Source of the DNA: Deltaproteobacteria bacterium
GTDB taxonomy: Bacteria; UBA10199; 2-02-FULL-50-16; JAJFLM01
Direction: 5' to 3'
Length of the DNA: 34,015 nt
NCBI GenBank assembly: GCA_021772655.1
Contig: JAJFLM010000098.1
Location: 1-34,015, forward strand
A model generated the notes under the pieces. It worked only from the letters and a program-made list of their open reading frames with translations. It did no database searches and was not told the DNA's origin. The translations under genes were made by a program, and so were the position numbers. Shown here one piece after another: positions 10,008 through 34,015 of the stretch; position 1 is the first letter of the stretch; every line of letters begins with the position of its first letter.

Positions 10008-10014
10008 GGTGGGC

Positions 10015-13000
10015 GTGATTGGTCATGGGTTTATTCAAATGGGAAGTTCCCAACTTCTAGCGGCGTCGTCCGCCACACACAGTCAGTTGTTTGTGGGGGC
10101 CGCTGACCAACTGACTCAGCTGGTCACGCGAGCCAACACCGTTGAAGTCGATACGGTACTGCCACCCTTACGTCATCTGGTTCAAGGACTGGAGCAGATG
10201 AATATGCCGTTAGATATTGTTACGGCAGCCAATAACATTCGCGAAAGCATTGAAGAGATTAGACAACAAAACCCAGCGGCCAGTATTTCAGCCTATGCTC
10301 TGGTGGGTGAGCTCAACGAACATGAGTTATTGCCCAGACCGGATGAAACACCTCAGGATGCGATTGACCGGCTCTTTCAGGACCGTCAAACCAGAAACAA
10401 CATGCCGGCGCTTGCCTTACACCGCAATCGCATCACGCAAAGTTTTGCGCGCACCGGACGCTTTCACCCCATCGCATCGATTCAATATCGTCAAGCACCG
10501 GCCGGAACACACATTACCGAACTAGAAGCCCCACCTGTACTTGAAACGAACATTGAAGAAGAAGCTGTCGTCGCTAATGACAACGCCCAACAAGCCACAC
10601 GAGACAACCCGGTGCCGTTTCACATTAAAGGTCGTGAGGAACTCCAGTATTATATTACCGGCATTCTCGGTGAAGGCGCCGGTGGCATTGTTTATGAAGC
10701 CTATGATGTACGGATTGGCCGTTATGTCGCCATCAAACTCATCAGCGATTTAAAAGGCATGGGTGATAAAGAAAAGAAACTTGAGATGTTTCGCAATGAA
10801 GCCCATCTGCAGGGAACTGTACGTCACCATCGCATTGTCGAAGTCTTTGACATGGGTGAAGATCAAACTGGGCAACCTTTTGCCGTCATGCAGTTGATGC
10901 ATAACAACCTGCAAAGCTTACTGCTCAAACAGCTAAATGATGGGCACTTTAAGCTAGAACAACGGATGAATTTAGCCGAACAAGCCGTCGCCGCCGTCGC
11001 TAAAGCCCATGCGCTGGGAATTGTGCACAAAGATATCAAACCCGAAAACTTTTTCTTAAATGAACACGCTGATGGTCAGATTACCGTTCATCTCGGCGAC
11101 TTTGGAATCGCGCAGAAAAAAACTGCTATTGACGCTGACTCAGCGGCGGGTATTACAAAGCAGGTTCGCGGCACACCCATCTATATGGCAGCCAGTGATT
11201 TTTTTGATCATGTGCCTGATGATTATACCCGTGACGTCTATGCTTTAGGCACCCTCATCTATGAATTACTCACGGATGACCTCCCCTATGACTGCGACGG
11301 CGATTATATTAAGATTTGTTATATCAAGAATGAAAATGATCCCGAAGCACCCAGCCGGATGGCACGCGGTCGTGGCATTCCTAGCAGTGTGGACCGCATC
11401 ATTTTAAAGGCACTCGCACGCGATCCAAGCGAACGCCAGGCCAATGCCGAAGAATTACTCTTTGAACTGGTAACCTATCGTGCACAGGCTCATGAAGAAC
11501 ATGCTGACACGCTTCGCAAATCCATCTCTGCACTTGTTGAACAAGATGAACGCAATATGGAATTTATTAACGACACCATGGATGAATGGCGTGCGGCCCT
11601 AGCACAAGCTCTGACAGAATATAAAAAGTCCTACGTGCTCTACAAACTTCCCAGCACCAAAGAAAAATTAGTCTCTATTCACTATCAATTGATCCGCTTG
11701 GCCAATCGTCAAGGCAATGAAGGCGAACGGCGACGCTTGATTGAAGAGCTCAAACTAATTGAACCAGATGCCCCTCAGATTGAAAAATTAGAACAGCCTA
11801 TCAGCGTGCAGATTCAATATGACGAAGGAGTTATTGATGATGGTAGGTTTCTAGTCCAACTCAGGAGAAGTACCGACAACCGTGGCATCTTAGAATTTGA
11901 AGATGAAAGCATTACGCTTAAACTACCCACAAGTTTTACGGACTTAGAACGCGGCTCAGCTTATAGCATCGGCTTGACTCATCCTGAGTTCCATCCGGTG
12001 AATATCCCTCTACCAGTACGCCACTCGGCTCTGCCTCACAGGGTCAGAATCCCTTTATATCGCAGGGGAACGGTTCCCAAAGATTGGTTAATTATTCCTG
12101 CAGGCCCGGTTGCCGTTCGCGAATTCAGTGGGCGCTTTTCAGAACGCGTTGAAGCACACGATTGGCGTGAAATCCCTTATGATTATGCCATCGGCCCTAA
12201 AGTCACGAATGCTCAATATATCGAATTCTTGATGGCCATCCGGTCTTTTATTGAAACCCGCCTTGTGCGAGACCGAGACAATTATGAGACCGAAAAACAA
12301 AGATTTGCCCAACAAATTCCGGCGCACTGGCACAGTGATATTCATGAGCGCCTGCTCGACACATCTTTGCGGACACATATGGATTTGCTTGATAACAACG
12401 GTATGTCCCTAGAAAAAAATGGGGCCGTAACGGGTGTCAGTTATAAAAATGCCGTCGCCTTTTTAAAATGGAAATACCGCAATAAAAATGTCCTGCCAGC
12501 TGATTTAGATGAATGGAAAAAAGCCATGCGTGGCATTGACCGTCGCACTTACCCTTGGGGCGACAATACGCGTCGTGGCATTGCCTTATGGCGTTTTGCC
12601 GGGTGGCATAGTCTACTCCGTGTACCTGATAACAATTATGAAGGGGAATTTTCTCACCCACGACATAGAATGTCTTTAGGTGATATCTCGCCCTACTCAA
12701 TTTTTGATGGGTTTAATCTCGTCCAAGGGATTCGTTTTTTAGTCAGTGGCACTCAAACCTTGCTCCGACTTTCCGAGGCCACCGCTCAACGTGTTTTAGA
12801 TGCTTCTGATTTACAAGTAGATGCGTCTCAGGCCGATCAACTTTCTAGTTGGGTATTTGTCGCAGGTGAGCCCTATGATGCCCCCGTACCCACTAATGTT
12901 GATATTGTTCAACCGGTCTCCGTGCACAACCGCTCCGCTTTAGAAAAAGTCGGTTTTTTTCCAGTACAACGACTTAAGGAAGCCCAAAACGGGGTCACGC

Positions 13001-13032
13001 CAACCCCACGTATCAGCACACTCACACGTTAG
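10015..13032 (+). CDS. Ser/Thr protein kinase with C-terminal FGE-sulfatase-like domain (kinase 1)
   Basis: G-loop ILGEGAGGIVYEA, VAIKL, catalytic loop IVHKDIKPEN, GDFGIA; C-terminal IPAGPVAV...YDYAIGPKVTNAQYIEFL...RRTYPWGDN...VGFFPVQRL. Start uncertain: GTG 10009, GTG 10015 or ATG 10039. Confidence 0.88.
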   Translation: MIGHGFIQMGSSQLLAASSATHSQLFVGAADQLTQLVTRANTVEVDTVLPPLRHLVQGLEQMNMPLDIVTAANNIRESIEEIRQQNPAASISAYALVGELNEHELLPRPDETPQDAIDRLFQDRQTRNNMPALALHRNRITQSFARTGRFHPIASIQYRQAPAGTHITELEAPPVLETNIEEEAVVANDNAQQATRDNPVPFHIKGREELQYYITGILGEGAGGIVYEAYDVRIGRYVAIKLISDLKGMGDKEKKLEMFRNEAHLQGTVRHHRIVEVFDMGEDQTGQPFAVMQLMHNNLQSLLLKQLNDGHFKLEQRMNLAEQAVAAVAKAHALGIVHKDIKPENFFLNEHADGQITVHLGDFGIAQKKTAIDADSAAGITKQVRGTPIYMAASDFFDHVPDDYTRDVYALGTLIYELLTDDLPYDCDGDYIKICYIKNENDPEAPSRMARGRGIPSSVDRIILKALARDPSERQANAEELLFELVTYRAQAHEEHADTLRKSISALVEQDERNMEFINDTMDEWRAALAQALTEYKKSYVLYKLPSTKEKLVSIHYQLIRLANRQGNEGERRRLIEELKLIEPDAPQIEKLEQPISVQIQYDEGVIDDGRFLVQLRRSTDNRGILEFEDESITLKLPTSFTDLERGSAYSIGLTHPEFHPVNIPLPVRHSALPHRVRIPLYRRGTVPKDWLIIPAGPVAVREFSGRFSERVEAHDWREIPYDYAIGPKVTNAQYIEFLMAIRSFIETRLVRDRDNYETEKQRFAQQIPAHWHSDIHERLLDTSLRTHMDLLDNNGMSLEKNGAVTGVSYKNAVAFLKWKYRNKNVLPADLDEWKKAMRGIDRRTYPWGDNTRRGIALWRFAGWHSLLRVPDNNYEGEFSHPRHRMSLGDISPYSIFDGFNLVQGIRFLVSGTQTLLRLSEATAQRVLDASDLQVDASQADQLSSWVFVAGEPYDAPVPTNVDIVQPVSVHNRSALEKVGFFPVQRLKEAQNGVTPTPRISTLTR

Positions 13033-13035
13033 CCG

Positions 13036-14886
13036 TTAAGCATCTTCTTTATCTACACGAACGCTTGATGGACTAATCAACTCCGGATAATAAACCGATA
13101 AATCAATATAACCAGCAGGTCCCGCCTGCCACTTAGGCAGATTATATTGCTCGGCGTCCGCTGCAGCAATATGATAAGAAAAAACTCGACCCTGGGTGGT
13201 AATCGCTTGCTGTTGTGCTTGATCTAATAATTCTCGCGTCCGTTGCGGTGGCGTATGTAAAGGGGGCACCCCATTATCTATCAAGACAATAGGACTCTTC
13301 CATTCAGGATCTAAGATACCTCCCACATGACGTATAATGCGAGCAGCCCGTGCTTCGGTCATAATCGGATCATGTCCAGTGGCTGGCAAAGTATACTGCC
13401 GCACAGCCTGATGATCAGCATTGGTATCCCCTGAAAAATAAACCATGGGATTCTTATCATCAGCGTGAGCAAATAAATCAAAGCCTATTGTAGGGATACT
13501 ATGAAAAGAATAGTCTACCTCTATAGACATCCCTAAAATTGAGGCACGCTGTTGGGGGTATAGGGGCACGAAATCCCATTGAGCTAAATCAGCTAATTCC
13601 GAACCCACGGCCAAGTTATAAAGCTCACGCAACATATCGTATATGACAGGTGTCGTATAAACCGTGATATCAGGCAAAGCCTGCAACAATTGTGGGATCG
13701 CATTACCATAATGATCACTGTGTCCATGAGTGAGAATAATTCCTGCAATCGTCTCTAAGGGCATATCATGCTCACTTAAAAATTTTAAGGTGCTGGACGG
13801 CGGATCAATAATCACGGCGCGACCCTGATTCCACAACATAAAACCACTGGTTTCTTCATCATGGCAAAAACCATGCCCCGTACCAATGGGGACTAAAGCC
13901 GGACGCCCCGCATCCATTAATTTATTCAGTAAAGAGACTAACATCACATTAGGTTTTAATGCGCGGTGATCAGAGCGATGCCGCATCAATGGAAAACGTT
14001 TTGGATCTCCCAAATCAAGCTGATAAGTATTCCTTCCATCATGCACCGTATACTGCTGCCGGCCACGACGCGAAATAATCAAGCCCCCTAAGCGCACTAT
14101 ATTCTTTTCACTAAATGCCGAAATCTGTCGGAGGGCTTCGGGCTCGACCCCATCAAAAGAGCGCATTTCTGCGGCTAAATCGGGGATGCCGACCGCAGTA
14201 GGTGAATACTCGGCTTTAACCAAGGCTGCCATGTGATCCCGATCTGGCCCACGATAAGACAGGTTAAGGTATTGTTCCAAACGCTGTGCTGTCGCGGCAT
14301 CCGGCGCGACTAATTGCATCGTCATGCCCTGCGTGACGAAATGCATATATTGCACAAAATCAGCAGGAATCAGGCCATCCGTAGCGTCTACATAATCTAA
14401 ATCAAAAATATATTTTGTCGGAACAATAAACGGAATATCCTCAGGTCGAATTTCACGATCTGACGCTTCTTGATACAAGGCTAAGCTATCCTTATTCGTC
14501 CACATCGGCACACCAAATTGCACCCAACCCTCACTAGTCATTAAAATAGCGCCACCGCGTGGCAACGCTTTGATCGTCCCGGCCGGTGCCATCGGACTAT
14601 TTCCACCCACACTCCCCGGTGGGGCGGCACCATTAGCAACATTACCGTAGGAGAAATGTGCCGTCGCACAAAAATATTTTAAGGAACCATTCTGCCATAA
14701 GTTATGGTCTGGAAGATAAAAACCATGCTCTGGCAATTGAAGATAATTAGAAAGGCCTGGCGGCGGCGTCTGGATAAACGTTTGTCCCGCCGCAAATAAT
14801 TGCGGATCTGAACCAGCGGCCATTAGTGGCAAACCCCCGAGCACCCCTAAGGTCGCGTTTGTCGCTGCAATATTCAGCAGACTCAC
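13036..14886 (-). CDS. Metallo-beta-lactamase-fold hydrolase, possible cyclic-nucleotide phosphodiesterase
   Basis: IAGIILTHGHSDHYGN (HxHxDH), YFSGDTNADH, GTGHGFCHDEETSGFMLWNQGRAVIIDPP, N-terminal LPRGGAILMTSEGWVQFGVP. Start GTG at 14886 chosen for SD GGGAGG; ORF track starts at 14937. PDE role is inference. Confidence 0.82.
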   Translation of the reverse strand: MSLLNIAATNATLGVLGGLPLMAAGSDPQLFAAGQTFIQTPPPGLSNYLQLPEHGFYLPDHNLWQNGSLKYFCATAHFSYGNVANGAAPPGSVGGNSPMAPAGTIKALPRGGAILMTSEGWVQFGVPMWTNKDSLALYQEASDREIRPEDIPFIVPTKYIFDLDYVDATDGLIPADFVQYMHFVTQGMTMQLVAPDAATAQRLEQYLNLSYRGPDRDHMAALVKAEYSPTAVGIPDLAAEMRSFDGVEPEALRQISAFSEKNIVRLGGLIISRRGRQQYTVHDGRNTYQLDLGDPKRFPLMRHRSDHRALKPNVMLVSLLNKLMDAGRPALVPIGTGHGFCHDEETSGFMLWNQGRAVIIDPPSSTLKFLSEHDMPLETIAGIILTHGHSDHYGNAIPQLLQALPDITVYTTPVIYDMLRELYNLAVGSELADLAQWDFVPLYPQQRASILGMSIEVDYSFHSIPTIGFDLFAHADDKNPMVYFSGDTNADHQAVRQYTLPATGHDPIMTEARAARIIRHVGGILDPEWKSPIVLIDNGVPPLHTPPQRTRELLDQAQQQAITTQGRVFSYHIAAADAEQYNLPKWQAGPAGYIDLSVYYPELISPSSVRVDKEDA

Positions 14887-15005
14887 GCTCAACCTCCCTC
14901 TCCAGAAGAACTTCTTAGGATTATTCGGGTAAGTCAATAGAATGTTGCGTCTTTTTGCAAAGTAAGTTATGTCAGCGAAAACTAACTACTTCTTGCAAAA
15001 AACCG

Positions 15006-15033
15006 CGCAACTCTTCGAGATAACTCGCGAAAA
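15006..15033 (+). promoter_or_regulatory. Bipartite upstream motif CGCAAC-N15-GCGAAAA, copy 2
   Basis: Matches 9980..10007 in words and spacing; ends 9 nt before the kinase-2 ATG. Confidence 0.45.
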
Positions 15034-15042
15034 CCCAAACCC

Positions 15043-18000
15043 ATGTTCACCCTGGCCCCGGCACTCACCAACAGCACCTTTTTATATGCGACGTCACTCT
15101 CCTCAGCGGCTGTCCCCTTACCTCCTGATGCAACTCTGATTCATCGACAAGCTGTCTGGGAATTGCAAGGGGCTATTGAATCACAAAACCATGTCAGCTT
15201 AGCCTTTGCCGTACCGCGTATTGGAGCCATCGCCCAAGAACTTGAACAAAGTGATGCTGATGAAGATAAAGTCCAAGCCGCACAGATTTTACATACCTTG
15301 CTGAAAACACAATATGACGAAAACCCTGAAGCCAGCATCCCGAGCGACAAACTTCTAGCTGAACTGCGACAAGATAGCATTATTCCAGAGCCCACTGCTG
15401 AAAGTCGCGCCGAAGCCTCACGCTATCAACAAGGCATCCAACGTAATACCTTATTATTTGGGGGACCCTACCCTAAACTACAACGTCAAACCGGACTGCG
15501 TTTTTTTGATAGTGAAGTTCCTGTAGAAGAAGCTGCAGAGCGACTTGCAGAATCTGTCGCCGTCAGCCTGGATGAAGGAGTCCTGAAGGCCACAACCTCT
15601 GACCTAACGGGTTTTATTACACGACGTGCACTCACTGCTGAAGGTAACACCGTCACCATTCAAACCGAATATAAAAGAACAACCGTACTGGGGCAAGGCG
15701 GCATGGGTGTCGTGTACCGTGCCCGAGACATGCAATTGGACCGCGATGTCGCTATTAAAATGATGCATGTGCAAGCCACTGATGATCGACCTGATAAAGA
15801 GGAACTACGCCAAGAATTTATTGAGCGTTTTAGAAATGAAGCGCGCTTGCAGGGTGGTATCGAAACAGAAACCATTGTACGGGCCTATGTCACCGCTGTA
15901 CAGGGAGATGGTGACCCTTATTTAGTTATGGAAATGCTCAAGGGTTCACTCGGTAAGATTATCGATGAAACCAACAGCGGTAGAAGAGCTTTTAATTTAG
16001 AAGAAGCCGTACGCTTTGCGCGGCAAGCCGCTGAATCACTAGCGGATGTTCATGCCCGTGGTTTGATCCATCGCGATATTAAGCCTGACAATTTCTTTAT
16101 CTCGGAAAAAGGTCGTCTGAAACTGGGTGACTTTGGAATCGCTATCTCAAGCAAAGATGTGGAGCAAGAAGATCACAGTCGCGTCGCCGGATCACCCGAG
16201 TATATTGCACCGGAATGTTGGGAGCATCGACCCGACTCTTTTAAACGTGATGTCTATGCCTTAGGGGCCATGCTCTACGAAATATTTACCGGCGAACTCC
16301 CCTTTAGTTTTAATGACCTGGAACCTGGACAGGATCCCATGCGTTTTATCATGATGAAATCAATGACAACTGATTTTGAACCTGTCCATCTCAGAGCCAT
16401 TGACCGGCAAATCCCTGAAGCCTTAAGTAATATTATTTCAAGAGCCCTGACAAAAGATCCTGAAGAACGCCCCACAGCTCATGAATTATTGGTCAGCCTC
16501 TTAACCTTCGAAGCCGAAGTTGATTTGAACGTATCGGCAGCCATGAAACATTTAAATGGTCGGGAAATTGAAAAATCTACTGAGGGTGGAAAAAGTGCCC
16601 TCGCCACCAGCTGGCTTGATTTACTGAAAAACGCCGCCATTGGATTTAAACACGCGTACGATATTGTCCACAGTGAGAGCATTAAAGACCGAATTATCGA
16701 AATCTTCGAAGAAATCGCACAATGGGCGGACACGGTCGGCAATGATCCCGAAAGAACAGCCGCGATTCGTGAACTGAGACGCTATGATCCCGATAACTTT
16801 GTCGCCCACGAATTAAGCCAAAATATTCCGGTCCGCATTCGCTACAGCACTCAATCAGGTTTACCCCTGCGTGTGTTTGCAGATGATGAAGAATTTCGCG
16901 TCACCCTAGGTCGCTTTACCGACGAGGGCGGCGTATTAAAATGGGATGGTGTAAAAAAGACATACCCCTCTCCGATTAAAACGCTCCCTTTATTACCACG
17001 TGGTGGCAACCATCAATTAAGAGTCGATCATCCGTCACTTCATAGCGTGGCTATCCCACTACCCGCAAGACCCAGTAGTGTCGCACATGTTGTAAGAGTA
17101 CCACTCTATTTAAAAGGTGAGACAAGATTGCCAGGAGCTCTCAAACTACCCGATGATTTTATTATTATTCCTGCGGGACATGTGGCGAGCAATATTCCTG
17201 GGGGGCGACACAGTCGACAACTACCCGATGAGGAATCATGGAAACCGATCTCTTATGATTATGCCATGGGACCCAAAGTCACCAATCAGCAGTACCTAGA
17301 CTATATTATTGACGAGTATGCCGCAGTCCTTGAAGAAAACGATGATATTGGAGAAGCAGGAGATAATAACTTTATCGATATGGCTTTAGTAGCTGTCGGA
17401 AAAAGAATTCCCAGCCATTGGAACCCACGGATCAGAGACAAGCTAGCCCGAGGTTTAGACCTTGCTGCCAGTGATTATATAGATGTGGATGGAAGGCCGC
17501 TGGATTTAGGGGCTGCCGTTACGGGGATTACCTACCCTAATGCCCTCAAATATTTGGACGTCACGTACCGCGAGCATAATAAGTTTAATAGAGAAAATGG
17601 TTATGAAACCCGAGCGCGGCCCGCCACCCTGCATGAATGGAAGCGTGCGGTGCGCGGCAATGATGTTCGGATGTTTCCTTGGGGCGACCGTATTATTAGC
17701 GGGGTCGCGGATTGGCGCTTTACCGGTGATTTTTCACAGGCCCGCATCCGCGCTAACCATGACATCTATACTGATACAAGACTTGGCGACTGGTCCCCCT
17801 TCTCACTCATGAAACAAAATGGTTTAGAACGCGGGATTGGCTTTTTAGTCAGCGGCACCCGTACCATGTTGAGTATGGATCCAGAATATGTCGGCGCTAT
17901 TTTAGAAGCCTCAGGTAGGCTGCAACATATTGACCCCAACGATAAAAACCAATTAGCTCAGGTTGTGTTTACCGTTGGGGGTGCCTACAACGCAGGCCCA

Positions 18001-18138
18001 CCCAGCACGATAGAAATCGTCACCCCTTACCGTGTACAGGACATGGCCATCATGGAAGAAACGGGTTTCTTTCCAGTGATACGATTGAATACTTCAAAGA
18101 CAGGGCCAACACCTAAATGGGAGACGCTCACTCAATGA
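15043..18138 (+). CDS. Ser/Thr protein kinase with C-terminal FGE-sulfatase-like domain (kinase 2)
   Basis: VLGQGGMGVVYRARD, VAIKMM, LIHRDIKPDNFF, LGDFGIA, GSPEYIAPE; C-terminal IIIPAGHVA...YDYAMGPKVTNQQYLDYI...RMFPWGD...TGFFPVIRL. Confidence 0.93.
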   Translation: MFTLAPALTNSTFLYATSLSSAAVPLPPDATLIHRQAVWELQGAIESQNHVSLAFAVPRIGAIAQELEQSDADEDKVQAAQILHTLLKTQYDENPEASIPSDKLLAELRQDSIIPEPTAESRAEASRYQQGIQRNTLLFGGPYPKLQRQTGLRFFDSEVPVEEAAERLAESVAVSLDEGVLKATTSDLTGFITRRALTAEGNTVTIQTEYKRTTVLGQGGMGVVYRARDMQLDRDVAIKMMHVQATDDRPDKEELRQEFIERFRNEARLQGGIETETIVRAYVTAVQGDGDPYLVMEMLKGSLGKIIDETNSGRRAFNLEEAVRFARQAAESLADVHARGLIHRDIKPDNFFISEKGRLKLGDFGIAISSKDVEQEDHSRVAGSPEYIAPECWEHRPDSFKRDVYALGAMLYEIFTGELPFSFNDLEPGQDPMRFIMMKSMTTDFEPVHLRAIDRQIPEALSNIISRALTKDPEERPTAHELLVSLLTFEAEVDLNVSAAMKHLNGREIEKSTEGGKSALATSWLDLLKNAAIGFKHAYDIVHSESIKDRIIEIFEEIAQWADTVGNDPERTAAIRELRRYDPDNFVAHELSQNIPVRIRYSTQSGLPLRVFADDEEFRVTLGRFTDEGGVLKWDGVKKTYPSPIKTLPLLPRGGNHQLRVDHPSLHSVAIPLPARPSSVAHVVRVPLYLKGETRLPGALKLPDDFIIIPAGHVASNIPGGRHSRQLPDEESWKPISYDYAMGPKVTNQQYLDYIIDEYAAVLEENDDIGEAGDNNFIDMALVAVGKRIPSHWNPRIRDKLARGLDLAASDYIDVDGRPLDLGAAVTGITYPNALKYLDVTYREHNKFNRENGYETRARPATLHEWKRAVRGNDVRMFPWGDRIISGVADWRFTGDFSQARIRANHDIYTDTRLGDWSPFSLMKQNGLERGIGFLVSGTRTMLSMDPEYVGAILEASGRLQHIDPNDKNQLAQVVFTVGGAYNAGPPSTIEIVTPYRVQDMAIMEETGFFPVIRLNTSKTGPTPKWETLTQ

Positions 18139-21100
18139 ACCTCCTCGCCTTTTCATCTTTGAATCAAGCCTCGTTACTCCTAGCCAGCGCCGGAGCGCCT
18201 GCTACGCAACATTCCGTCAGCGCGCAACAAAGCTATGTGGATGCGGCACGAGAAGTGCATACCCAAATTGGTCAAGGTATCCCCTTAATGACCAATGAAG
18301 ATGCGTATCAACTCACAACGCGTTTACTAAGTGGTATCCGCGCTTTACCAATGCTTTCCAACAATAGTACATCGCTAAGAGGCGGGATTGTTAAAGACGC
18401 TGAAGAACTCATCAATCGCTATGACAGAATTCGTACCATTGAAGCCGAGCGACCTGGCAGCATTGTCGCACCGCTTACCAAAAAAGGCTTTTTAAAATCA
18501 CTCGTCAAACGCAAACTGGCGCCTGAACAGGGTACTGATGAAGCCATTCAAGCGCACATTGATCGTTTCTTAACCGGCGCCGCTTTTATGCATGACGTAC
18601 CCTACGTTGATAACAGGGGCCACACTTTAACAGTCCAAAAATTGGACTTGGCTGCCGTACAAGCTGCTTATGCCAGCGCAGCAACACCCGCTGAGGATGA
18701 GACGCCTATTACAATTATGTCCGCTGAAACGGATACACCGGGACAAGACGCGCGCTCGCAACAAGCGATTCCCAGTATTGTTCCCATTAGCGTTTCTGAT
18801 CAAAAATCATTAATGATTAGAGACAGTGAAACCGGCGCCATCCACCCCTCTAAGTTCTATGAACTTGTCGAACTCGCTGAAGGAGGCGAAGCCAAAGTTT
18901 TTAAGGCGACACAACGCGATGCTGATCGCGCTGTCGCACTCAAAATTAGTACTGCTAAAGCTTTCTCAAAAGATGAGCATGCTAAGAACTTAAATGAAAT
19001 TCGCTTGCTCAGCGATAATGCTCCTGGTGCGATTCAAGTATATGATGCTGGATTCACGGCCGAAGACTTGCCTTATATTGCCATGCAATACATGAACCAA
19101 GGCACTATTTTTGATTATTTAGAGCGACACAACCTTCCAATGGAAGAACTCATCGAGATCTGTGAAGAAATTATTTATTCTATTGTACAAGCGAGTCATC
19201 AACGCGGCATCATTCATCGTGACATCAAGCCAGAGAATTTTTTAGTTCATCTGCTACCTGATAGAACCATCTCCGAATCCCGTAATGGCAGCGAACCTCC
19301 GGCACGGATGCGACGCATTATCAAAAGTGCCGACTATGGTATTGCTATTACACCCGAGGAGTTTGATGAACTTGACAGCGGCAGTCCGAAATATTTTGCC
19401 GGCACGCCTGAATATATGCCCAAGGAATCCTTCACCGGCAGCCCTCCTGACTTTCGCTTTGATGTTTTCTCCTTAGGAACCACATTATTTGAACTATTAA
19501 CCGGCAAACTTCCCTACCCGCAAAAAAAGGGAGAGGTTCATACGGCTTATATCGTGAGACGTATGGGAGAAGCGGCCCCCATAGCTAATCCCAAAGAGCT
19601 AAACCCACAAATACCACAGTGGCTGAACGACATTATCCTTAAAGCCATCGATAATGATCCGGAGCAACGCTTTGCTGATCCGACAGACATGCTCTTTGCT
19701 TTCATCACCCATGAAGCGCGCCAGTACGAACAAGGCGCTAGCACTCAAGTACGGCAAAAACGTAATACCTTGCAGCCACAATCATTGCGTGAACTAATGC
19801 GTCAAGACGCCGTGCAACGACGACGCTCTGAAAAACATCGCTTACGCATGTTAAGGCAAGCCATTAGCAAATACGAAGAGGCCTACCGTCGTTTTCCCTT
19901 AGAAGCCATTCGTCAGAAAATTGTGGAACTAACTTTTGCGCTTTGGCAAGAGGCCAGTCAACGCGGTATAGATGAGGACATCACGCGAACCCGCAACCGG
20001 CTCCGCGACTTATTGCCAGAATCAGATGCACGCTATCGCTTAGCTGATAAGGATGTAAATCTTACCTTTATAATTGACGGAGGTTTTGCGACGGGCGTCC
20101 AACCGAGTTTTCATTTTGCACGCGCACTGAATGAAGATGGTGACCTCTCTAACTCCGCCTATTCAGGCAAACAGCATAATGGTGTTTTCCAACATACCCT
20201 GCCACCTTTAGGTTCACATCGCCTGACCATGTTGGCTCCCCAACATATTCCGGTTGCCATCCCATTACCCCCTCAAGCAGGGGATTATACAGTTCGCATT
20301 CCGGTCTATCAACTCAGCCAGGTTCCACAGTGGGCTCGTGAAGAACATTTACTGATCCCCGCGGGGCAAGTGACCGCTTGGCGTGAAGGTGATTCGTACA
20401 GTGGTGAACGTGACAGCAGTCGCTTGAGAAGTGTCGACCATGATTTTATGATTGGTCCACTGGTCAGTAATCAAAATTGGATTGATTTTCTTTTTAAATA
20501 TGCCGAAATACACGGCCAAAAAGCGGCTATGCTACACATCCCACGCGATGAACATGGCTATCTCTGGCATTGGGATGACGGTGCCTTACGTTTTCTGGAC
20601 CGCAACAACTTGCCCGTTGAAACAAGCGTACCCGTCAACAATTATCATCCCAACTCAATTCAGGCATTTATTGACATCATGCGTCCCGGTGCAAGCCTCC
20701 CAACACTTGATCAATTAAAGTTAGCCGCCCGCGGTGTAGATGGCCGCAAATGGCCCTGGGGAGATATGAATCCCCATGGCGGTGAAGCCGCTTTCCAAAC
20801 GACAGGAGAGTCATCTGATTATGTCCGCTTACCAATTCATGAATCGATGATAGATCAGAGCCCCTACTCCGTATTTGATGAACATGGGCGCCCTATTTGT
20901 CAGATCAACCACATGATTGGTAATTTGGAACGACCTATTGATGTCCCTCCAAACCACGAAGAGCGTATCTTCGGAATCTATAAAATGGATCCGGAAAAAA
21001 TTTCTGCCGAACAAAAACAAGCTATTCTATGGAGCTTTGGTGCGGCCTACGACACGACACCTCGCGATGCCGAACAAGTCCATCGTCGCATGAATTTTAC

Positions 21101-21155
21101 CAGCTCACATCGTGTGGGTTTACAACTGGTTTATAATTTATCGGGCCCACGCTAA
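18135..21155 (+). CDS. Ser/Thr protein kinase with C-terminal FGE-sulfatase-like domain (kinase 3)
   Basis: IIHRDIKPENFLV, SADYGIAI, GTPEYMPKESF, VFSLGTTLFELLTGKLPY; C-terminal LLIPAGQVTAW...HDFMIGPLVSNQNWIDFL...RKWPWGDM. ATG overlaps kinase-2 stop as ATGA, so start is 18135 rather than 18117. Confidence 0.92.
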   Translation: MNLLAFSSLNQASLLLASAGAPATQHSVSAQQSYVDAAREVHTQIGQGIPLMTNEDAYQLTTRLLSGIRALPMLSNNSTSLRGGIVKDAEELINRYDRIRTIEAERPGSIVAPLTKKGFLKSLVKRKLAPEQGTDEAIQAHIDRFLTGAAFMHDVPYVDNRGHTLTVQKLDLAAVQAAYASAATPAEDETPITIMSAETDTPGQDARSQQAIPSIVPISVSDQKSLMIRDSETGAIHPSKFYELVELAEGGEAKVFKATQRDADRAVALKISTAKAFSKDEHAKNLNEIRLLSDNAPGAIQVYDAGFTAEDLPYIAMQYMNQGTIFDYLERHNLPMEELIEICEEIIYSIVQASHQRGIIHRDIKPENFLVHLLPDRTISESRNGSEPPARMRRIIKSADYGIAITPEEFDELDSGSPKYFAGTPEYMPKESFTGSPPDFRFDVFSLGTTLFELLTGKLPYPQKKGEVHTAYIVRRMGEAAPIANPKELNPQIPQWLNDIILKAIDNDPEQRFADPTDMLFAFITHEARQYEQGASTQVRQKRNTLQPQSLRELMRQDAVQRRRSEKHRLRMLRQAISKYEEAYRRFPLEAIRQKIVELTFALWQEASQRGIDEDITRTRNRLRDLLPESDARYRLADKDVNLTFIIDGGFATGVQPSFHFARALNEDGDLSNSAYSGKQHNGVFQHTLPPLGSHRLTMLAPQHIPVAIPLPPQAGDYTVRIPVYQLSQVPQWAREEHLLIPAGQVTAWREGDSYSGERDSSRLRSVDHDFMIGPLVSNQNWIDFLFKYAEIHGQKAAMLHIPRDEHGYLWHWDDGALRFLDRNNLPVETSVPVNNYHPNSIQAFIDIMRPGASLPTLDQLKLAARGVDGRKWPWGDMNPHGGEAAFQTTGESSDYVRLPIHESMIDQSPYSVFDEHGRPICQINHMIGNLERPIDVPPNHEERIFGIYKMDPEKISAEQKQAILWSFGAAYDTTPRDAEQVHRRMNFTSSHRVGLQLVYNLSGPR

Positions 21156-21521: not shown

Positions 21522-24017
21522 TTACGTGACTCTTTTTAAGCGAAAACTTATCAGAACCGATAAGCCCAACAGCATCAGCCCAAACACCGAGGGATTTGCC
21601 CGCTGATCCAATAAGCTATTTTTACAGGCACCACTACCGCGCGCAAAGTTGCCCGCGGCATTTGCCGGATTGGTGCCTGCACCATCATCGCCAGCTGTAG
21701 CCGAGCCATCATCGCCGCCGCCAGCCGTATCACTACCGGCAGAGTCTCCACCCGCAGTATCACCGCCTGCTGTATCGCCACCCGTGGCTTCCATCAGGCA
21801 GTTCCCATCACAACCATCCCCTGGAGTGAGATTACCATCGTCACATTCTTCACCCGTTTGAACCGTCCCATCACCGCACACTTCATTCAAACACTGGCTG
21901 GAACAACCATCATCATCTGCGATATTACCATCATCACATTCTTCGCCTGCATCTACTTGGCCATCACCACAGATTTCAAATTCACAAATATCACTGCAAC
22001 CATCCCCGGCTGTGGTGTTGCCGTCGTCACATTCTTCACCCGTATCGAGAAAACCATCTCCACAAATTGGTGCCGCGGCCCCGACTTCGAAAGCTCCGCG
22101 ATCACATAAGCCATCTAAACGATTAAAAGTTCGTTGATCATCCCCTTCACACGCAGGGCTTCCTGTACCTGGAGTTGCTGGATTGGCGGTATCAATCGCT
22201 GGACTACCCGCTAGCAAGGCATGAGTATCTGTTAAGCCCCCATTACCTTGTAAGACATCTAACATCGCATCAATCGGAGACCCAGCTGTACCCACTAAAT
22301 CATTGGTACCCGTAAAACCCGTGCAGCCCGTACCATCCCCAATCAAATTATAATCCAATGAGATAAAGGCAATACCACCACAATCAACTGACGGTGCCGA
22401 CACCACCACACCATTGCCCGCTACAATCGAATTACTCACAGTGACCGTGCCAGGAAATGTAATCGGTCTATTATACAGCCCAGCTGCTTCCGAACTCTCA
22501 CCACCCCCCGATAAATCAAAACCATTTAGTGTGATGGTGGAATTATTAATCTCCACGGTCCCGGAATCATTCGCGACTCCGGATCCAGGCGCACGGCCCG
22601 AACGATTGCCACTGACAGTCACATTTCTCAAAAAGAGTTCGGCATCACTACCACCGACGTTCATAATACCGCCGCCCATACCACCAGACGAGTTGTTAGC
22701 AACGAGTGAATGCAGTACTGTCACCGTCCCGCCGCCGTCATCTTCTTCATGAAAAATGCCGCCACCGGAACCGGCAGTGTTATTACCACTGATTGTTGTC
22801 TCATCTATTAGAACGGTTCCATCTTCACTATACAAACCACCTGCATTCGCCTCGGCAAAATTATTGGTAATCGTACTGCGGTTGACCGTTACGGTCCCAC
22901 CATTATTAGAGATACAACCCCCGTAGCCCCCAAAGCTGCTGGCAAAATCAATATTTGCATTACAAGTCACATCATTAAGCGTCATGGTAGAATCGTTGCC
23001 ATTAGCCAGACCCATCCCATCACCACCAAACAAATTGTTTTCACTAATGCTGCCACCATTATGGGTATAACTAGCGCTAGGGCCCACATTCCAAACCCCA
23101 CCGCCAAAACCGCTACCGCCATCATTGCCGATGACATCTGTATTCGTGATAATGGCTGTCCCTCGGTTCAAAATACCACCCGCATCGTTCGAGCTATTCC
23201 CGTTGCCACTTTCCCCCACATCGGAGTCATTTATCGTCAACATGCCGCCGGTTGCATTAAAAATAGCTCCGCCTTCGCCTGCCTGATCAGTCGGTGTCGC
23301 TTCATTTTCAGTAAAAATAACTCGGGTTAATGTGGCGGTCCCTTCATTATAAATCGCACCCCCTAAACTCGCTCCACTGCCGCTCGTCCCGGTATTATTA
23401 GCTGCCATATTTTCAGAAAAAATTCCGTCTGTTACAGTCAGCATTGCCCCGGATAGATTAGAAATCGCACCACCACGTACAACCAAACTTGCGTCTGAAA
23501 ATTCAAGAGCAATATTATTGGCTAAAGTGATTGTATTAAGCGTCAGCGTACCTTCATTTAAAACACCTGCACCTTCACTGGCATGACTGCCCGTAATATT
23601 AAGCAGATTGAAAGTCGCCGTCACACCACTGTGAACGTGAAAAACCCGAATCGGTAACTGTGCTTGCGCTGAACTCACATCAACAGCTGTCGCTCCCGAA
23701 GGCGAAATTGTCAGATCGGCGGTTATGTCTAAGTCACCGACGGCCGCAATATCGTCATCACCGGGAAAGAACAGTGAAACAGAAGCCACTGAAATCACAA
23801 TATCATCAGCAGCTACCGTAAAGTTGGCCTCTTGAATCGCCGCGCGTAAGGTACAGTTTCCCTGCCCATCCGAACAAACCCCGTCACCAATATTATTATC
23901 AGTGCCATCAAAAGTAGAGTTTACGTTAAAAGTTGCTGCGTGCCCCGAAACAGACCAAACAATAATCGCTGTTACGATGGCAAGCAGGCCCCCAAGCCTT
24001 TGTAATGTTCGCCACAT
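21522..24017 (-). CDS. Secreted CSLREA-type beta-helix surface protein with DUF4215 repeats and C-terminal anchor-like tail
   Basis: Start MWRTLQRLGGLLAIVTAIIVWSVSGHAATFNVNSTFDG...DGQGNCTLRAAIQEAN (CSLREA-like); repeated GGG(I/L)xNxGT rungs; three CGDGxxxxGEECDDGN repeats; tail ACKNSLLDQRANPSVFGLMLLGLSVLISFRLKRVT. ORF track overextends to 24188. Confidence 0.88.
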   Translation of the reverse strand: MWRTLQRLGGLLAIVTAIIVWSVSGHAATFNVNSTFDGTDNNIGDGVCSDGQGNCTLRAAIQEANFTVAADDIVISVASVSLFFPGDDDIAAVGDLDITADLTISPSGATAVDVSSAQAQLPIRVFHVHSGVTATFNLLNITGSHASEGAGVLNEGTLTLNTITLANNIALEFSDASLVVRGGAISNLSGAMLTVTDGIFSENMAANNTGTSGSGASLGGAIYNEGTATLTRVIFTENEATPTDQAGEGGAIFNATGGMLTINDSDVGESGNGNSSNDAGGILNRGTAIITNTDVIGNDGGSGFGGGVWNVGPSASYTHNGGSISENNLFGGDGMGLANGNDSTMTLNDVTCNANIDFASSFGGYGGCISNNGGTVTVNRSTITNNFAEANAGGLYSEDGTVLIDETTISGNNTAGSGGGIFHEEDDGGGTVTVLHSLVANNSSGGMGGGIMNVGGSDAELFLRNVTVSGNRSGRAPGSGVANDSGTVEINNSTITLNGFDLSGGGESSEAAGLYNRPITFPGTVTVSNSIVAGNGVVVSAPSVDCGGIAFISLDYNLIGDGTGCTGFTGTNDLVGTAGSPIDAMLDVLQGNGGLTDTHALLAGSPAIDTANPATPGTGSPACEGDDQRTFNRLDGLCDRGAFEVGAAAPICGDGFLDTGEECDDGNTTAGDGCSDICEFEICGDGQVDAGEECDDGNIADDDGCSSQCLNEVCGDGTVQTGEECDDGNLTPGDGCDGNCLMEATGGDTAGGDTAGGDSAGSDTAGGGDDGSATAGDDGAGTNPANAAGNFARGSGACKNSLLDQRANPSVFGLMLLGLSVLISFRLKRVT
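21724..21783 (-). repeat. 15-bp in-frame tandem repeat (four units) encoding GGDTA-like linker
   Basis: + strand units gccgtatcactaccg / gcagagtctccaccc / gcagtatcaccgcct / gctgtatcgccaccc; protein GGDTAGGDTAGGDSAGSDTA. Confidence 0.8.
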
Positions 24018-24032
24018 AATAAGCTTTAATAA

Positions 24033-24048
24033 AGCAAGATCAGTGCCA
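24033..24048 (-). promoter_or_regulatory. Sigma54 (RpoN)-type -24/-12 promoter
   Basis: Minus strand TTGGCAC-TGATC-TTGCT; match to TTGGCAC-N5-TTGCW, immediately upstream of the CSLREA gene start. Confidence 0.7.
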
Positions 24049-30709: not shown

Positions 30710-32119
30710 CTAGAAAAAATTACTTAATATCTCCGTTAAGTCAATCAAACTTACGCTGCTGTCTTTTTCATTGGTGATGATGGCAACCAATGGCGAATCA
30801 TTAATGGAAATAGCATTAGGACCTAAACCAACGCCATCACTCGTCGTTAAAGTTTGACTGATGGAGTTGTCCATTAAATTAACGATGACGACCTGGTTAT
30901 TCGCAAAATCCGTCACCAAGGCGGCTGACCCCGATGCAATCGCCACATTGCGATAATCACCTGTCGCGGAAAGATCTACGGTCGTTTGCGTTATCAAACC
31001 TAAACCTGATAAACGGACTAAGCGATTGTTGCTCCGATCAATCAAGGCCACTTCAGTGGCACTATTAAAAAAAGCTAAACCAGCAAAATCACCGGCCCCA
31101 AGATTTACTTGCGACCCTAAGGAAATAATATTACTCGGCGGCGCAGAAACTATTAATTCTGTTAAAATCGTGTCGCCATTATCAAAAAGACTCAAGACAA
31201 CAAATCGTGGTAATGAAGAACCATCCGACGCTCCGGCAATGGCATAGGTACCAACATGTACCGCCGCGCCATTAGAAGGATGACTTACTAAGAAGGTAGT
31301 GCCCGTCGCCGGAAACATGAGACTGTTATCGACCATGGTGACAGAGCTCGCCCCGGTATCTTGCGCAATCAATGCAAACTCAGCACCTACCAAGCCTGTA
31401 GGGTCTGCCGCAATGGCAACAGGAGCTGTCACAGCAACCGACGCCCCCTTAGCAATACCCATCGCATCAACCACAAAATAAAAGTTATTGGCCTGATCAA
31501 TTAAATACGTATCTTGGGTGGAACGATCTAAAGCCAAATCAACCGGAAGCACTCCCGTCACATTCAAATCGGGTTGAGGTGTAAACGTCGATAAGGAATA
31601 ACAATCTACATCGGAACCATCTGAGAAGACTTGCAAAGTGCAACCTAGACTCGCCCCAAAACTAGTCGTCGCACCCACAGGCGTGGCATCAACGAGCGTA
31701 CGCCCATCAACGACCGTCACTAAAATACCACCGTCTTCGTTAGCTTCGCCGCCAATAACTTGTTCAATCAAAAAGCTATCACCTACTTGAGCTGGAAACG
31801 ATGTTTGGAAGCTACCACTACTGGTCGCTTGAGTGCTTGCCACTGGAGTGGTTTGTGCCAACAAGTTGAACCCTTGAGTGGCATTATTAAGAACATTAAT
31901 CGTGGCCCCATCAACAGCCGCGGCTTGATCACCGGCCAACTGCACCATACCACTGCTATCAGGCGAGGTAATCGATACTAAGCCAGCGACGGGAGCAGGA
32001 ATAGAAACAGGTGGGGACGCTGCGCCTGCACAGGCTTGAAGAAAGGCCAACCCTGTCCCTAAGCCACATAGGGCTGCTGCAATAAGTAGATAGCGTTTAT
32101 ATAAATTATATCGTTTCAT
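30710..32119 (-). CDS. Lipoprotein with beta-propeller-like (YVTN/NHL-like) body
   Basis: MKRYNLYKRYLLIAAALCGLGTGLAFLQACAGAASPP lipobox; repetitive segments such as IALIDRSNNRLVRLSG, ALVTDFANNQVVIVNLMDNSIS, VAIITNEKDSSVSLIDL. Confidence 0.72.
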   Translation of the reverse strand: MKRYNLYKRYLLIAAALCGLGTGLAFLQACAGAASPPVSIPAPVAGLVSITSPDSSGMVQLAGDQAAAVDGATINVLNNATQGFNLLAQTTPVASTQATSSGSFQTSFPAQVGDSFLIEQVIGGEANEDGGILVTVVDGRTLVDATPVGATTSFGASLGCTLQVFSDGSDVDCYSLSTFTPQPDLNVTGVLPVDLALDRSTQDTYLIDQANNFYFVVDAMGIAKGASVAVTAPVAIAADPTGLVGAEFALIAQDTGASSVTMVDNSLMFPATGTTFLVSHPSNGAAVHVGTYAIAGASDGSSLPRFVVLSLFDNGDTILTELIVSAPPSNIISLGSQVNLGAGDFAGLAFFNSATEVALIDRSNNRLVRLSGLGLITQTTVDLSATGDYRNVAIASGSAALVTDFANNQVVIVNLMDNSISQTLTTSDGVGLGPNAISINDSPLVAIITNEKDSSVSLIDLTEILSNFF

Positions 32120-32239: not shown

Positions 32240-32401
32240 CTATTTTATACAGAGCAAGCGTTGGACCACCTCATCCATCCCTCCGGATTGACGGTGGCTG
32301 ACTTCTATCTCGCCGCGTCCCATTAACATAGCATATATAATTAAAATTCCGCCCAAGACACAGAGGACTCGAACGGCTCCCTTCCTGTTTAAGGATCTCA
32401 T
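32240..32401 (-). CDS. 53-aa single-pass membrane microprotein
   Basis: Own translation: MRSLNRKGAVRVLCVLGGILIIYAMLMGRGEIEVSHRQSGGMDEVVQRLLCIK*; ATGA overlap with the upstream microprotein gene. Confidence 0.6.
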   Translation of the reverse strand: MRSLNRKGAVRVLCVLGGILIIYAMLMGRGEIEVSHRQSGGMDEVVQRLLCIK

Positions 32402-32529
32402 CGTTTATCCTCCGCATTGGCATGTACGGGTTCAGATCCGTACCAATCGTGGTTTTGTTCGCTTAAGGTCGCACACCCACACTGCATGCAAGCAAAAGCT
32501 GCGATAAGTATTAGTGCTATCCGGATCAT
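32398..32529 (-). CDS. 43-aa small lipoprotein-like microprotein
   Basis: Own translation: MIRIALILIAAFACMQCGCATLSEQNHDWYGSEPVHANAEDKR*; SD AGGAGAGGTC directly upstream of ATG; lipobox-like cysteines. Confidence 0.65.
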   Translation of the reverse strand: MIRIALILIAAFACMQCGCATLSEQNHDWYGSEPVHANAEDKR

Positions 32530-32542
32530 GACCTCTCCTTTT

Positions 32543-32585
32543 AAAAAAAGTGAGGACGGAGGCTCCCTAAGTTGCCCCCGCCCTC
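32543..32585 (-). terminator. Rho-independent terminator between two microprotein genes
   Basis: Minus strand GAGGGCGGGGGC-AACTTAGGGA-GCCTCCGTCCTC-AC-TTTTTTT: 12-bp stem with two G.U pairs, then a U-tract, directly before the next gene's SD. Confidence 0.75.
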
Positions 32586-32598
32586 GGGATTGCTTGGG

Positions 32599-32697
32599 TT
32601 AGGTAGTTGTCGCTCCATCAGCATCTGGCCCCCCATCGGCCAGACCGGATGAGTAAAAATTTTCAGTGCCCTGCTGTGTAAAATTTTGTAATTTCAT
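32599..32697 (-). CDS. 32-aa micropeptide
   Basis: Own translation: MKLQNFTQQGTENFYSSGLADGGPDADGATTT*; SD AGGAG at correct spacing; 13-nt predicted 5'UTR from a sigma54-like promoter; followed by a terminator. Confidence 0.65.
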   Translation of the reverse strand: MKLQNFTQQGTENFYSSGLADGGPDADGATTT

Positions 32698-32720
32698 TGT
32701 GGCTCCTACCTGATACTAAG

Positions 32721-32736
32721 AGCAAAGCCTGTGCCA
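32721..32736 (-). promoter_or_regulatory. Sigma54 (RpoN)-type -24/-12 promoter
   Basis: Minus strand TTGGCAC-AGGCT-TTGCT; match to TTGGCAC-N5-TTGCW; predicted +1 near 32710, just ahead of SD and ATG (32697). Confidence 0.78.
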
Positions 32737-32856
32737 ATTGTGCTATTAAAATATTAAATCATTGATATTATTGAATTATTTAGTTTTTCAGGGAAAACGA
32801 GAGTAGGTGAACTATTAAAATATAATTTAATAAATATAATTATGTGACTATTTTAT

Positions 32857-32894
32857 ATATAAATCAGTTTACTGTTAACATGCTGATTTTATAT
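32857..32894. promoter_or_regulatory. Imperfect inverted repeat in an AT-rich divergent intergenic region
   Basis: ATATAAATCAG-N15-CTGATTTTATAT, upstream of the right-edge kinase. Confidence 0.35.
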
Positions 32895-32945
32895 GGTTTT
32901 ATAAATAGTCCTTGCCATCTTATCTAATAATTATAAAATCATCTC

Positions 32946-34015
32946 GTGTCTGTCATTGATCATGATTATGAGATTATCCGCCTACTCGGTGAAGGCATGT
33001 CCGGGGAAGTTTACGAAGTCACCCGCAACCAACAAACCTGGGCACTCAAACTCTTAAAGCAACAACCCGAACAAAGTGATCCCGCAGCTTGGATTGAGGC
33101 CTTTAAGTTTGAATTCTCGCTGCTCAAAGATATCAACCACCCCCACATTGTAAGCATTGGTGATTTTGGTTGGGACCGCGAACGCGATCAACTTTATTTC
33201 ACGCAAGAATTGGTGCAAGGCGTCCCCCTCAACGAATACTTAACGCCCAAAACTGACATCAACACCGCACAAGATTTATTTAGACAATGCTTGCAAGGTT
33301 TAGACGCCATCCATCAAGCCAATGCCTTGCACGGTGACATCAAGCCCTCGAATATTTTTGTGGTTACCTCCACTCAGCAACCCGCCATCAAAATTTTAGA
33401 TCTAGGAATCTCCCACCCGCGCTTTCAATTGAATTCTGGAACCCCGGCTTACATGGCTCCTGAAAAAATTCTTGGAGACACCGTGGACGTACGTTCTGAC
33501 CTCTATTCCTTAGCGGTCAGTTTTTATGAATGTCTCACGGCCAGCAATCCCTTCCGCGGCAAGAGTAGTAATGAAACTTTACGAAATCAAACCGCCCTGC
33601 TCCCAGCTGCTCCTGGCTCATTAAATCGCGCCATCACACCTACTTTCAATCAAATCCTCTTCCGCTTATTAGCAAAGAACCCGCGCGACCGTTACAACAA
33701 TGCAAAAACAGTACTTGAGACACTCTCCTTACAACAAGGGGGGCATCATGCGATTGCAGCCCCGCTATTAACAGAACGCTGGATTGGCCGCAGCGATACC
33801 GTCGAGCAAGCCACCCAGTGGTCACAAAACCTCAGTGACTTTTCAGTACTTTTTATCACGGGTCCTGCAGGCATCGGTAAATCGCGTCTGCTGGAAGAAA
33901 TGAAATACGAATTTGAATTGGCCGGCAATAGTGTGCGCAGTTATTCCCCTGCCAATAAAGGCAAATTGCAAGCGAACGTTATTTATTTATTAGACGATGA
34001 CAGCCTGCAGGCTGA
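32946..34015 (+). CDS. Ser/Thr protein kinase fused to AAA ATPase (PknK-like architecture), truncated by window edge
   Basis: Own translation from GTG: VSVIDHDYEIIRLLGEGMSGEVYEV...WALKLL...ALHGDIKPSNIFV...ILDLGIS...GTPAYMAPEKI...; then GRSD...LFITGPAGIGKSRLLEE (Walker A). Not in ORF track because it has no stop in the window. Confidence 0.88.
   Translation, partial: MSVIDHDYEIIRLLGEGMSGEVYEVTRNQQTWALKLLKQQPEQSDPAAWIEAFKFEFSLLKDINHPHIVSIGDFGWDRERDQLYFTQELVQGVPLNEYLTPKTDINTAQDLFRQCLQGLDAIHQANALHGDIKPSNIFVVTSTQQPAIKILDLGISHPRFQLNSGTPAYMAPEKILGDTVDVRSDLYSLAVSFYECLTASNPFRGKSSNETLRNQTALLPAAPGSLNRAITPTFNQILFRLLAKNPRDRYNNAKTVLETLSLQQGGHHAIAAPLLTERWIGRSDTVEQATQWSQNLSDFSVLFITGPAGIGKSRLLEEMKYEFELAGNSVRSYSPANKGKLQANVIYLLDDDSLQA

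What the first reader, a model, noticed from the sequence alone, without database searches (positions are those of the whole stretch)
32240..32736. Uncalled three-microprotein locus with its own sigma54-like promoter and internal terminator
Three tiny minus-strand ORFs are absent from the track: 32 aa MKLQNFTQQGTENFYSSGLADGGPDADGATTT, 43 aa lipoprotein-like, and 53 aa single-TM. The first two have strong SDs and the third overlaps the second as ATGA. The promoter gives a predicted 13-nt leader. A terminator after the first ORF would make abundant 32-aa peptide with limited readthrough into the two membrane microproteins, as expected for a peptide signal, toxin or RiPP-like precursor with associated envelope proteins. 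The GG at residues 22-23 could be a processing site, but that is speculation.
Basis: partly seen in the sequence, partly recalled or inferred. Interest (0 to 1): 0.7.

Follow-up and report, generated by a model that had tools for sequence, protein, structure and literature searches.

The report
Sigma54 operon head with small ORFs
Three tiny unannotated genes sit at the start of a sigma54-controlled operon for a cell-surface lipoprotein; the promoter, regulator and lipoprotein recur in distant relatives, but the tiny proteins themselves do not, so whether the first one acts as a peptide or only rides on a short regulatory RNA is still open.

Summary
The locus is not free-standing. It is the head of an operon running into a 469-aa Ig/beta-propeller lipoprotein, divergent from the N-terminus of a Ser/Thr-kinase gene. 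The closest homologues of that kinase (50-54% identity) are sigma54 enhancer-binding proteins (kinase, AAA, TPR, GAF, Sigma54_activat, HTH_8). The cassette 'kinase-EBP / sigma54 box / lipoprotein' recurs across the class. Between box and lipoprotein, five genomes of another family and one of a third also have a terminated leader of about 155-255 nt, but without a convincing shared ORF. No homologue of the three microproteins was found in 47 genomes of the phylum. Architecture, hydrophobicity and base composition favour real genes; codon usage is inconclusive. A RiPP precursor, secreted signal or toxin is not supported. Best reading: an EBP-switched sigma54 promoter makes a short terminated transcript (here with a 32-aa ORF), and readthrough feeds envelope proteins. 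This is a new variant of a known kind of regulation.

The parts
32721..32736 (-). sigma54 (-24/-12) promoter box TGGCACAGGCTTTGCT; +1 expected near 32710
   Evidence: exact match; 32 boxes in the genome against 1 for the reversed control; a perfect box at the corresponding place in L006 and other cassettes
32599..32697 (-). 32-codon ORF MKLQNFTQQGTENFYSSGLADGGPDADGATTT, AGGAG Shine-Dalgarno, 23 nt after the box
   Evidence: no homologue found
32543..32585 (-). intrinsic terminator: 12-bp stem GAGGGCGGGGGC/GCCTCCGTCCTC, 10-nt loop, T7
   Evidence: terminators at comparable distance from the box in L006, L110-L113 and L108
32398..32529 (-). 43-codon ORF with hydrophobic N-terminus (signal-peptide or lipoprotein-like), AGGAG Shine-Dalgarno
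   Evidence: no homologue
32240..32401 (-). 53-codon ORF, one predicted transmembrane stretch, ATGA overlap with the 43-codon ORF
   Evidence: no homologue
30710..32119 (-). 469-aa lipoprotein: N-terminal signal/LQAC, Ig-like domain, C-terminal beta-propeller; conserved partner of the cassette
   Evidence: homologues in 20 of 61 genomes; AlphaFold model pLDDT 85; propeller matches
32946..34013 (+). divergent Ser/Thr-kinase gene, N-terminal part (kinase plus start of AAA_16), cut by the contig end; predicted sigma54 enhancer-binding protein
   Evidence: Pfam; full-length homologues carry Sigma54_activat, GAF, TPR and HTH_8
32737..32945 (.). AT-rich divergent intergenic region (23-30% GC), expected to hold the activator sites
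   Evidence: no specific site identified

Best explanation
This is the 5' end of a sigma54 operon switched by the divergently encoded kinase-type enhancer-binding protein (EBP). When the EBP senses its signal (unknown; its homologues carry kinase, TPR and GAF sensor domains) it activates the box at 32721-32736. Most transcripts end at the hairpin at 32585-32543, giving an RNA of about 165 nt that carries a translatable 32-codon ORF. A minority read through into the translationally coupled 43-aa and 53-aa small membrane proteins and on to the surface beta-propeller lipoprotein. The kinase-EBP / box / lipoprotein arrangement, and a terminated leader in two other families, are shown by comparison. 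That this EBP drives this box, that readthrough is regulated, and that the small ORFs are translated are inferred. The leader could act through its peptide, through its RNA, or simply as a terminator gate on the lipoprotein; I favour the gate/short-RNA role, because leader plus terminator recur in relatives and the ORF does not.
For: Exact sigma54 box with a 32-to-1 genome-wide excess over control and an rpoN gene. Same layout in other genomes: divergent kinase-EBP, sigma54 box, lipoprotein. Closest full-length kinase homologues (54% in G038, 50% in G032) have Sigma54_activat and HTH_8. Terminator end at +171 from the box here, at +155 to +183 in the five f10 genomes and +255 in G032. The f10 leaders share a structured hairpin with compensatory changes at 3 of 28 pairs. 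Several other sigma54 genes of this genome have SD-ATG starts 20-39 nt after the box; here it is 23. Hydrophobicity of the 43- and 53-codon ORFs is reached by only 1.2% and 0.3% of spurious ORFs. GC is 45-53% over the ORFs against 23-35% in the flanking intergenic stretches.
Against: The EBP of this locus is cut off at the kinase/AAA boundary, so its sigma54 domain is inferred. Leaders of different families do not align, so shared origin of leader and terminator is not shown; the kinase tree needs two changes for the leader trait. Several cassettes have the box directly before the lipoprotein with no leader, and in a few no box was recognised. Synonymous codon usage does not separate the small ORFs from spurious ones. 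No transcript data.
Confidence: 0.6

Rival explanations
1. The 32-aa ORF is a functional microprotein made abundantly from the sigma54 promoter, and the two membrane microproteins work with it at the envelope.
For: Strong SD and ATG at the spacing used by other sigma54 genes of this genome. Codon plus amino-acid score like true genes: only 0.2% of spurious ORFs score as high. The chance of such an ORF after the box is about 2%. The hairpin inside the ORF is no stronger than synonymous recodings give (p 0.26), so RNA structure does not explain the ORF.
Against: No homologue in 47 genomes of the phylum or elsewhere in its own genome. Relatives' leaders at the same place have no comparable SD-led ORF. 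Synonymous-only codon score is not gene-like enough to decide (18th percentile of real fragments).
Confidence: 0.4
2. The product is a noncoding sigma54-dependent small RNA, diverged from the structured leader seen in the f10 family, and the 32-codon ORF is incidental.
For: f10 leaders are structured, terminated and without a shared SD-led ORF. Similar transcript length. Leader as a whole folds at z -2.1. Sigma54-driven sRNAs are known elsewhere (CrcZ, GlmY; PMC8657755, PMC7073468).
Against: Without the terminator the fold is ordinary (z -0.9). No sequence match to the f10 hairpin in this genome. No Rfam match.
Confidence: 0.3
3. RiPP precursor, secreted peptide signal or toxin.
For: Small size, GG at residues 22-23, neighbouring membrane peptides.
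Against: No hydrophobic export signal in the 32-aa peptide, no canonical double-glycine leader motif, no maturation, protease or exporter gene recognised on the sequenced side of the locus, and no family match.
Confidence: 0.05
4. The 43- and 53-codon ORFs are decayed remains of a larger first lipoprotein gene, as found in that place in G032 and G008.
For: G032 and G008 have a 253-aa and a 247-aa lipoprotein between the box and the conserved lipoprotein. Poor codon scores of both ORFs.
Against: No tblastn match of either ORF in those loci; SD and ATGA coupling are intact (1/3000 by chance).
Confidence: 0.15

Closest known systems
QseE/QseF-GlmY (E. coli): sigma54 EBP, lipoprotein QseG and a sigma54-driven small RNA in envelope sensing (PMC7073468)
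   Same: A sigma54 promoter under an EBP drives a short RNA; a lipoprotein belongs to the system; envelope theme.
   Different: QseF is a two-component response regulator; here the EBP homologues are Ser/Thr-kinase-AAA-TPR-GAF proteins, the lipoprotein is a beta-propeller inside the same operon, and the leader carries an ORF. No sequence relation tested or claimed.
CbrAB-CrcZ/CrcY (Pseudomonas): RpoN-dependent ncRNAs (PMC8657755)
   Same: Short sigma54-dependent RNAs controlled by an EBP.
   Different: Crc RNAs are decoys for Hfq-Crc; this transcript lies in front of an operon and holds an ORF with an SD.
Sigma54 control of the bacterial exterior (Francke et al. 2011, PMC3162934)
   Same: EBPs and sigma54 promoters associated with surface and lipoprotein genes.
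   Different: The kinase-AAA-TPR-GAF EBP with a propeller lipoprotein and this terminated ORF-bearing leader was not found described in the papers searched.
Leader-peptide attenuators (such as the E. coli trp leader; general knowledge)
   Same: Short ORF followed by a terminator ahead of structural genes.
   Different: No run of regulatory codons and no evident competing antiterminator: the terminator pairs with probability 0.999.

Membership tests
sigma54-dependent promoter | GG at -24 and GC at -12 with correct spacing (TGGCAC-N5-TTGCW) | tested here: met
   exact match; genome excess 32 to 1
sigma54-dependent promoter | sigma54 factor encoded in the genome | tested here: met
   Sigma54_DBD, E 7.7e-62
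sigma54-dependent promoter | activation by an EBP in vivo | not testable with these tools
   needs a mutant or reporter
Ser/Thr-kinase enhancer-binding protein (divergent gene) | kinase domain followed by AAA_16 | tested here: met
   Pkinase 2.2e-41; AAA_16 2.5e-5, under the curated cut-off, the domain being truncated by the contig end
Ser/Thr-kinase enhancer-binding protein (divergent gene) | Sigma54_activat and HTH_8 at the C-terminus | tested here: inconclusive
   contig ends before them; present in the five full-length homologues scanned
intrinsic terminator | stable GC-rich hairpin directly followed by a T run | tested here: met
   12 bp, about -26 kcal/mol, T7 two bases after the stem
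double-glycine-leader peptide or RiPP precursor | conserved leader before GG, plus a maturase or C39 exporter gene nearby | tested here: not met
   no such leader pattern by eye; no such gene recognised among the ORFs of the window and no family match for the peptide; DNA beyond the kinase not available
lipoprotein (43-aa ORF) | lipobox with L/V/I at -3 and C at +1 | tested here: not met
   AFAC and QCGC only (read from the sequence); weak PROSITE-like fit at C14
f10 structured leader RNA | apical hairpin GUCGAGGU..UGGAGUGCCCCUYGA | tested here: not met
   pattern absent from this genome

The most novel reading that the evidence does not exclude
In this little-studied class, kinase-type sigma54 activators control surface lipoproteins through a dedicated short terminated leader transcript whose content is replaced between lineages: a structured RNA in one family, an ORF-bearing RNA here. 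The 32-aa product or its RNA would be a lineage-specific regulator of the lipoprotein system.
Probability: 0.3. Interest if true: 0.6.

Novelty: new variant of a known kind. Interest (0 to 1): 0.42.

Why it matters
It places three unannotated small genes in a defined regulatory setting: a recurrent, apparently undescribed cassette of a Ser/Thr-kinase sigma54 activator, a sigma54 promoter and a beta-propeller lipoprotein. It gives a testable case of a sigma54 operon whose first product is a short terminated transcript. If the leader is functional, it would be a new example of sigma54-driven short RNA or peptide control of the cell surface in uncultured bacteria.

Tried and rejected
CsrA decoy: the f10 leaders have GGA loops, but CsrA is absent from the f10 genomes, so rejected for them. 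Rfam: nothing. Homologues of the microproteins: none in own genome, relatives, phylum or plasmids; L002-L005 are chance hits at E 0.05-0.9. Lipoprotein homologues in viral contigs: none. Joining the kinase to contig C328 (L136): its start is a paralogue, not the continuation. Activator sites in the intergenic region: only AT-rich repeats. RNA structure as an explanation for the ORF: not stronger than synonymous recodings. L006 and G034:C34 (L047, L076, L079) are the same contig and were counted once. The first kinase tree missed most rows through a strict text filter and was replaced.

Full report
What is there. On the minus strand, in order: an exact sigma54 box TGGCACAGGCTTTGCT (32736-32721), a 32-codon ORF (32697-32599) with AGGAG shortly before its ATG, a 12-bp GC-rich hairpin with a 10-nt loop and T7 (32585-32543), a 43-codon ORF (32529-32398) with its own AGGAG, a 53-codon ORF (32401-32240) starting in the ATGA overlap, 120 nt of AT-rich spacer, and a 469-aa lipoprotein gene (32119-30710). 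The tool that scans for terminators did not list the hairpin because it allows loops of 8 at most; folding shows it plainly at about -26 kcal/mol, formed with probability 0.999.

Is it more than chance? The box is one of 32 exact boxes in the genome; the reversed control pattern occurs once, and the genome has one sigma54 gene. In dinucleotide shuffles of the region, an SD-led ATG ORF of 30 codons or more 10-50 nt after the box arises in 61 of 3000, and an SD-led ORF of 40 codons coupled by ATGA to another of 40 in 1 of 3000. The best hydrophobic stretches of the 43- and 53-codon ORFs are reached by 1.2% and 0.3% of spurious ORFs of similar length. GC is 45-53% across the ORFs and 23-35% in the flanking spacers. 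Codon usage is mixed. The 32-codon ORF scores like a gene when amino-acid content counts but is undecided on synonymous choice alone, and the other two score poorly. ORFs this short cannot be settled that way.

What surrounds it. The gene divergent from the promoter (32946 to the contig end) is a Ser/Thr kinase with the start of an AAA_16 domain. Its closest homologues, 54% and 50% identical, and three more distant ones (five full-length proteins scanned) are kinase-AAA-TPR-GAF-Sigma54_activat-HTH_8 proteins, i.e. sigma54 enhancer-binding proteins. The window's own copy is cut before those domains, so its role is inferred. Contig C328 of the same genome carries a paralogue, not the missing half. 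The 469-aa protein has homologues in 20 of 61 genomes searched. Its model (mean pLDDT 85) shows a long, mainly beta fold, and sequence and fold searches find beta-propellers (1l0q S-layer protein E 4e-18, YncE, Pizza).

The recurring cassette. In another genome (L006, the same contig as G034:C34) the kinase gene is again divergent, followed by a perfect sigma54 box and the lipoprotein homologue. A survey of fetched loci gives three kinds: box directly before the lipoprotein (for instance L117, L056, L062); box plus a terminated leader (this window, +171; five f10 genomes, +155 to +183; G032, +255); and no box recognised (for instance L115). In the f10 genomes the leader is a structured RNA with a nearly invariant apical hairpin inside a terminator stem; 3 of 28 pairs show compensatory change. 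None of those leaders has an SD-led ORF comparable to the 32-codon one, and the f10 hairpin pattern is absent from this genome. On the kinase tree the leader trait needs two changes: shared origin with loss, or two gains, cannot be told apart.

The microproteins in relatives. No homologue of any of the three was found in the 47 genomes held for the phylum, in the own genome outside this locus, or in plasmids. The nearest relative held is of the same order but a different family, so absence says the ORFs are not class-wide; it does not show that they are not genes. Ka/Ks could not be computed.

How it most likely works. Shown: promoter sequence, terminator, ORF layout, conserved neighbours. Inferred: the divergent EBP turns on the box; most transcripts stop after about 165 nt; readthrough supplies the small membrane proteins and the lipoprotein. 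Whether the short transcript acts as peptide, as RNA, or only as a gate is not decided. The recurrence of leader plus terminator without the ORF in relatives tips the balance towards gate or RNA; the good translation signals and the spacing typical of this genome's sigma54 genes keep the peptide alive. Secreted signal, RiPP and toxin readings have no positive support. The confidences given to the best explanation and its rivals are not exclusive: the operon-head reading holds whether the leader works as peptide or RNA.

What it resembles. Sigma54-driven short RNAs under EBP systems are known (CrcZ/CrcY, PMC8657755; GlmY with QseEF and the lipoprotein QseG, PMC7073468), and sigma54 is tied to surface functions in general (PMC3162934). 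These are likenesses of working, not kinship. The kinase-type EBP with a propeller lipoprotein was not found described in the papers searched, but the library lacks most subscription journals.

Verdict. Moderate interest.

Noticed in passing
L006 4666-4773 (-), L110 2808-2915 (-), L111 6449-6556 (+), L113 4413-4520 (-), L112 1016-1123 (-): Conserved structured RNA between a sigma54 box and the lipoprotein gene in five genomes of one family: apical hairpin GUCGAGGUGUAUGGAGUGCCCCUYGAU inside a terminator stem; no Rfam match; GGA loop although these genomes lack CsrA.
   Followed up: partly
window 24033-24048 (-): Second exact sigma54 box in the window, inside the N-terminal extension of the ORF called from TTG 24188; an ATG at 24017 lies 15 nt after the box, so the gene may start there or the box is fortuitous.
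   Followed up: no
G000 C328, C210, C370, C379 (L130-L133): The own genome has several large proteins matching the sigma54-activator half of these kinase-EBPs; C328 is a paralogue of the window's kinase gene.
   Followed up: partly
L012-L041: Ten proteins encoded downstream of the genome's exact sigma54 boxes were scanned with Pfam and nearly all are without a family; a large sigma54 regulon of unknown proteins.
   Followed up: partly
window 10009-21155 (+): Three consecutive large proteins of 1007-1031 aa, each with kinase-like sequence and a C-terminal PWGD motif reminiscent of formylglycine-generating-enzyme domains; Pfam on the middle one gave only the kinase.
   Followed up: no
G000 C73 (L128): CsrA is present in this genome but in only 2 of 47 genomes of the class.
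   Followed up: no
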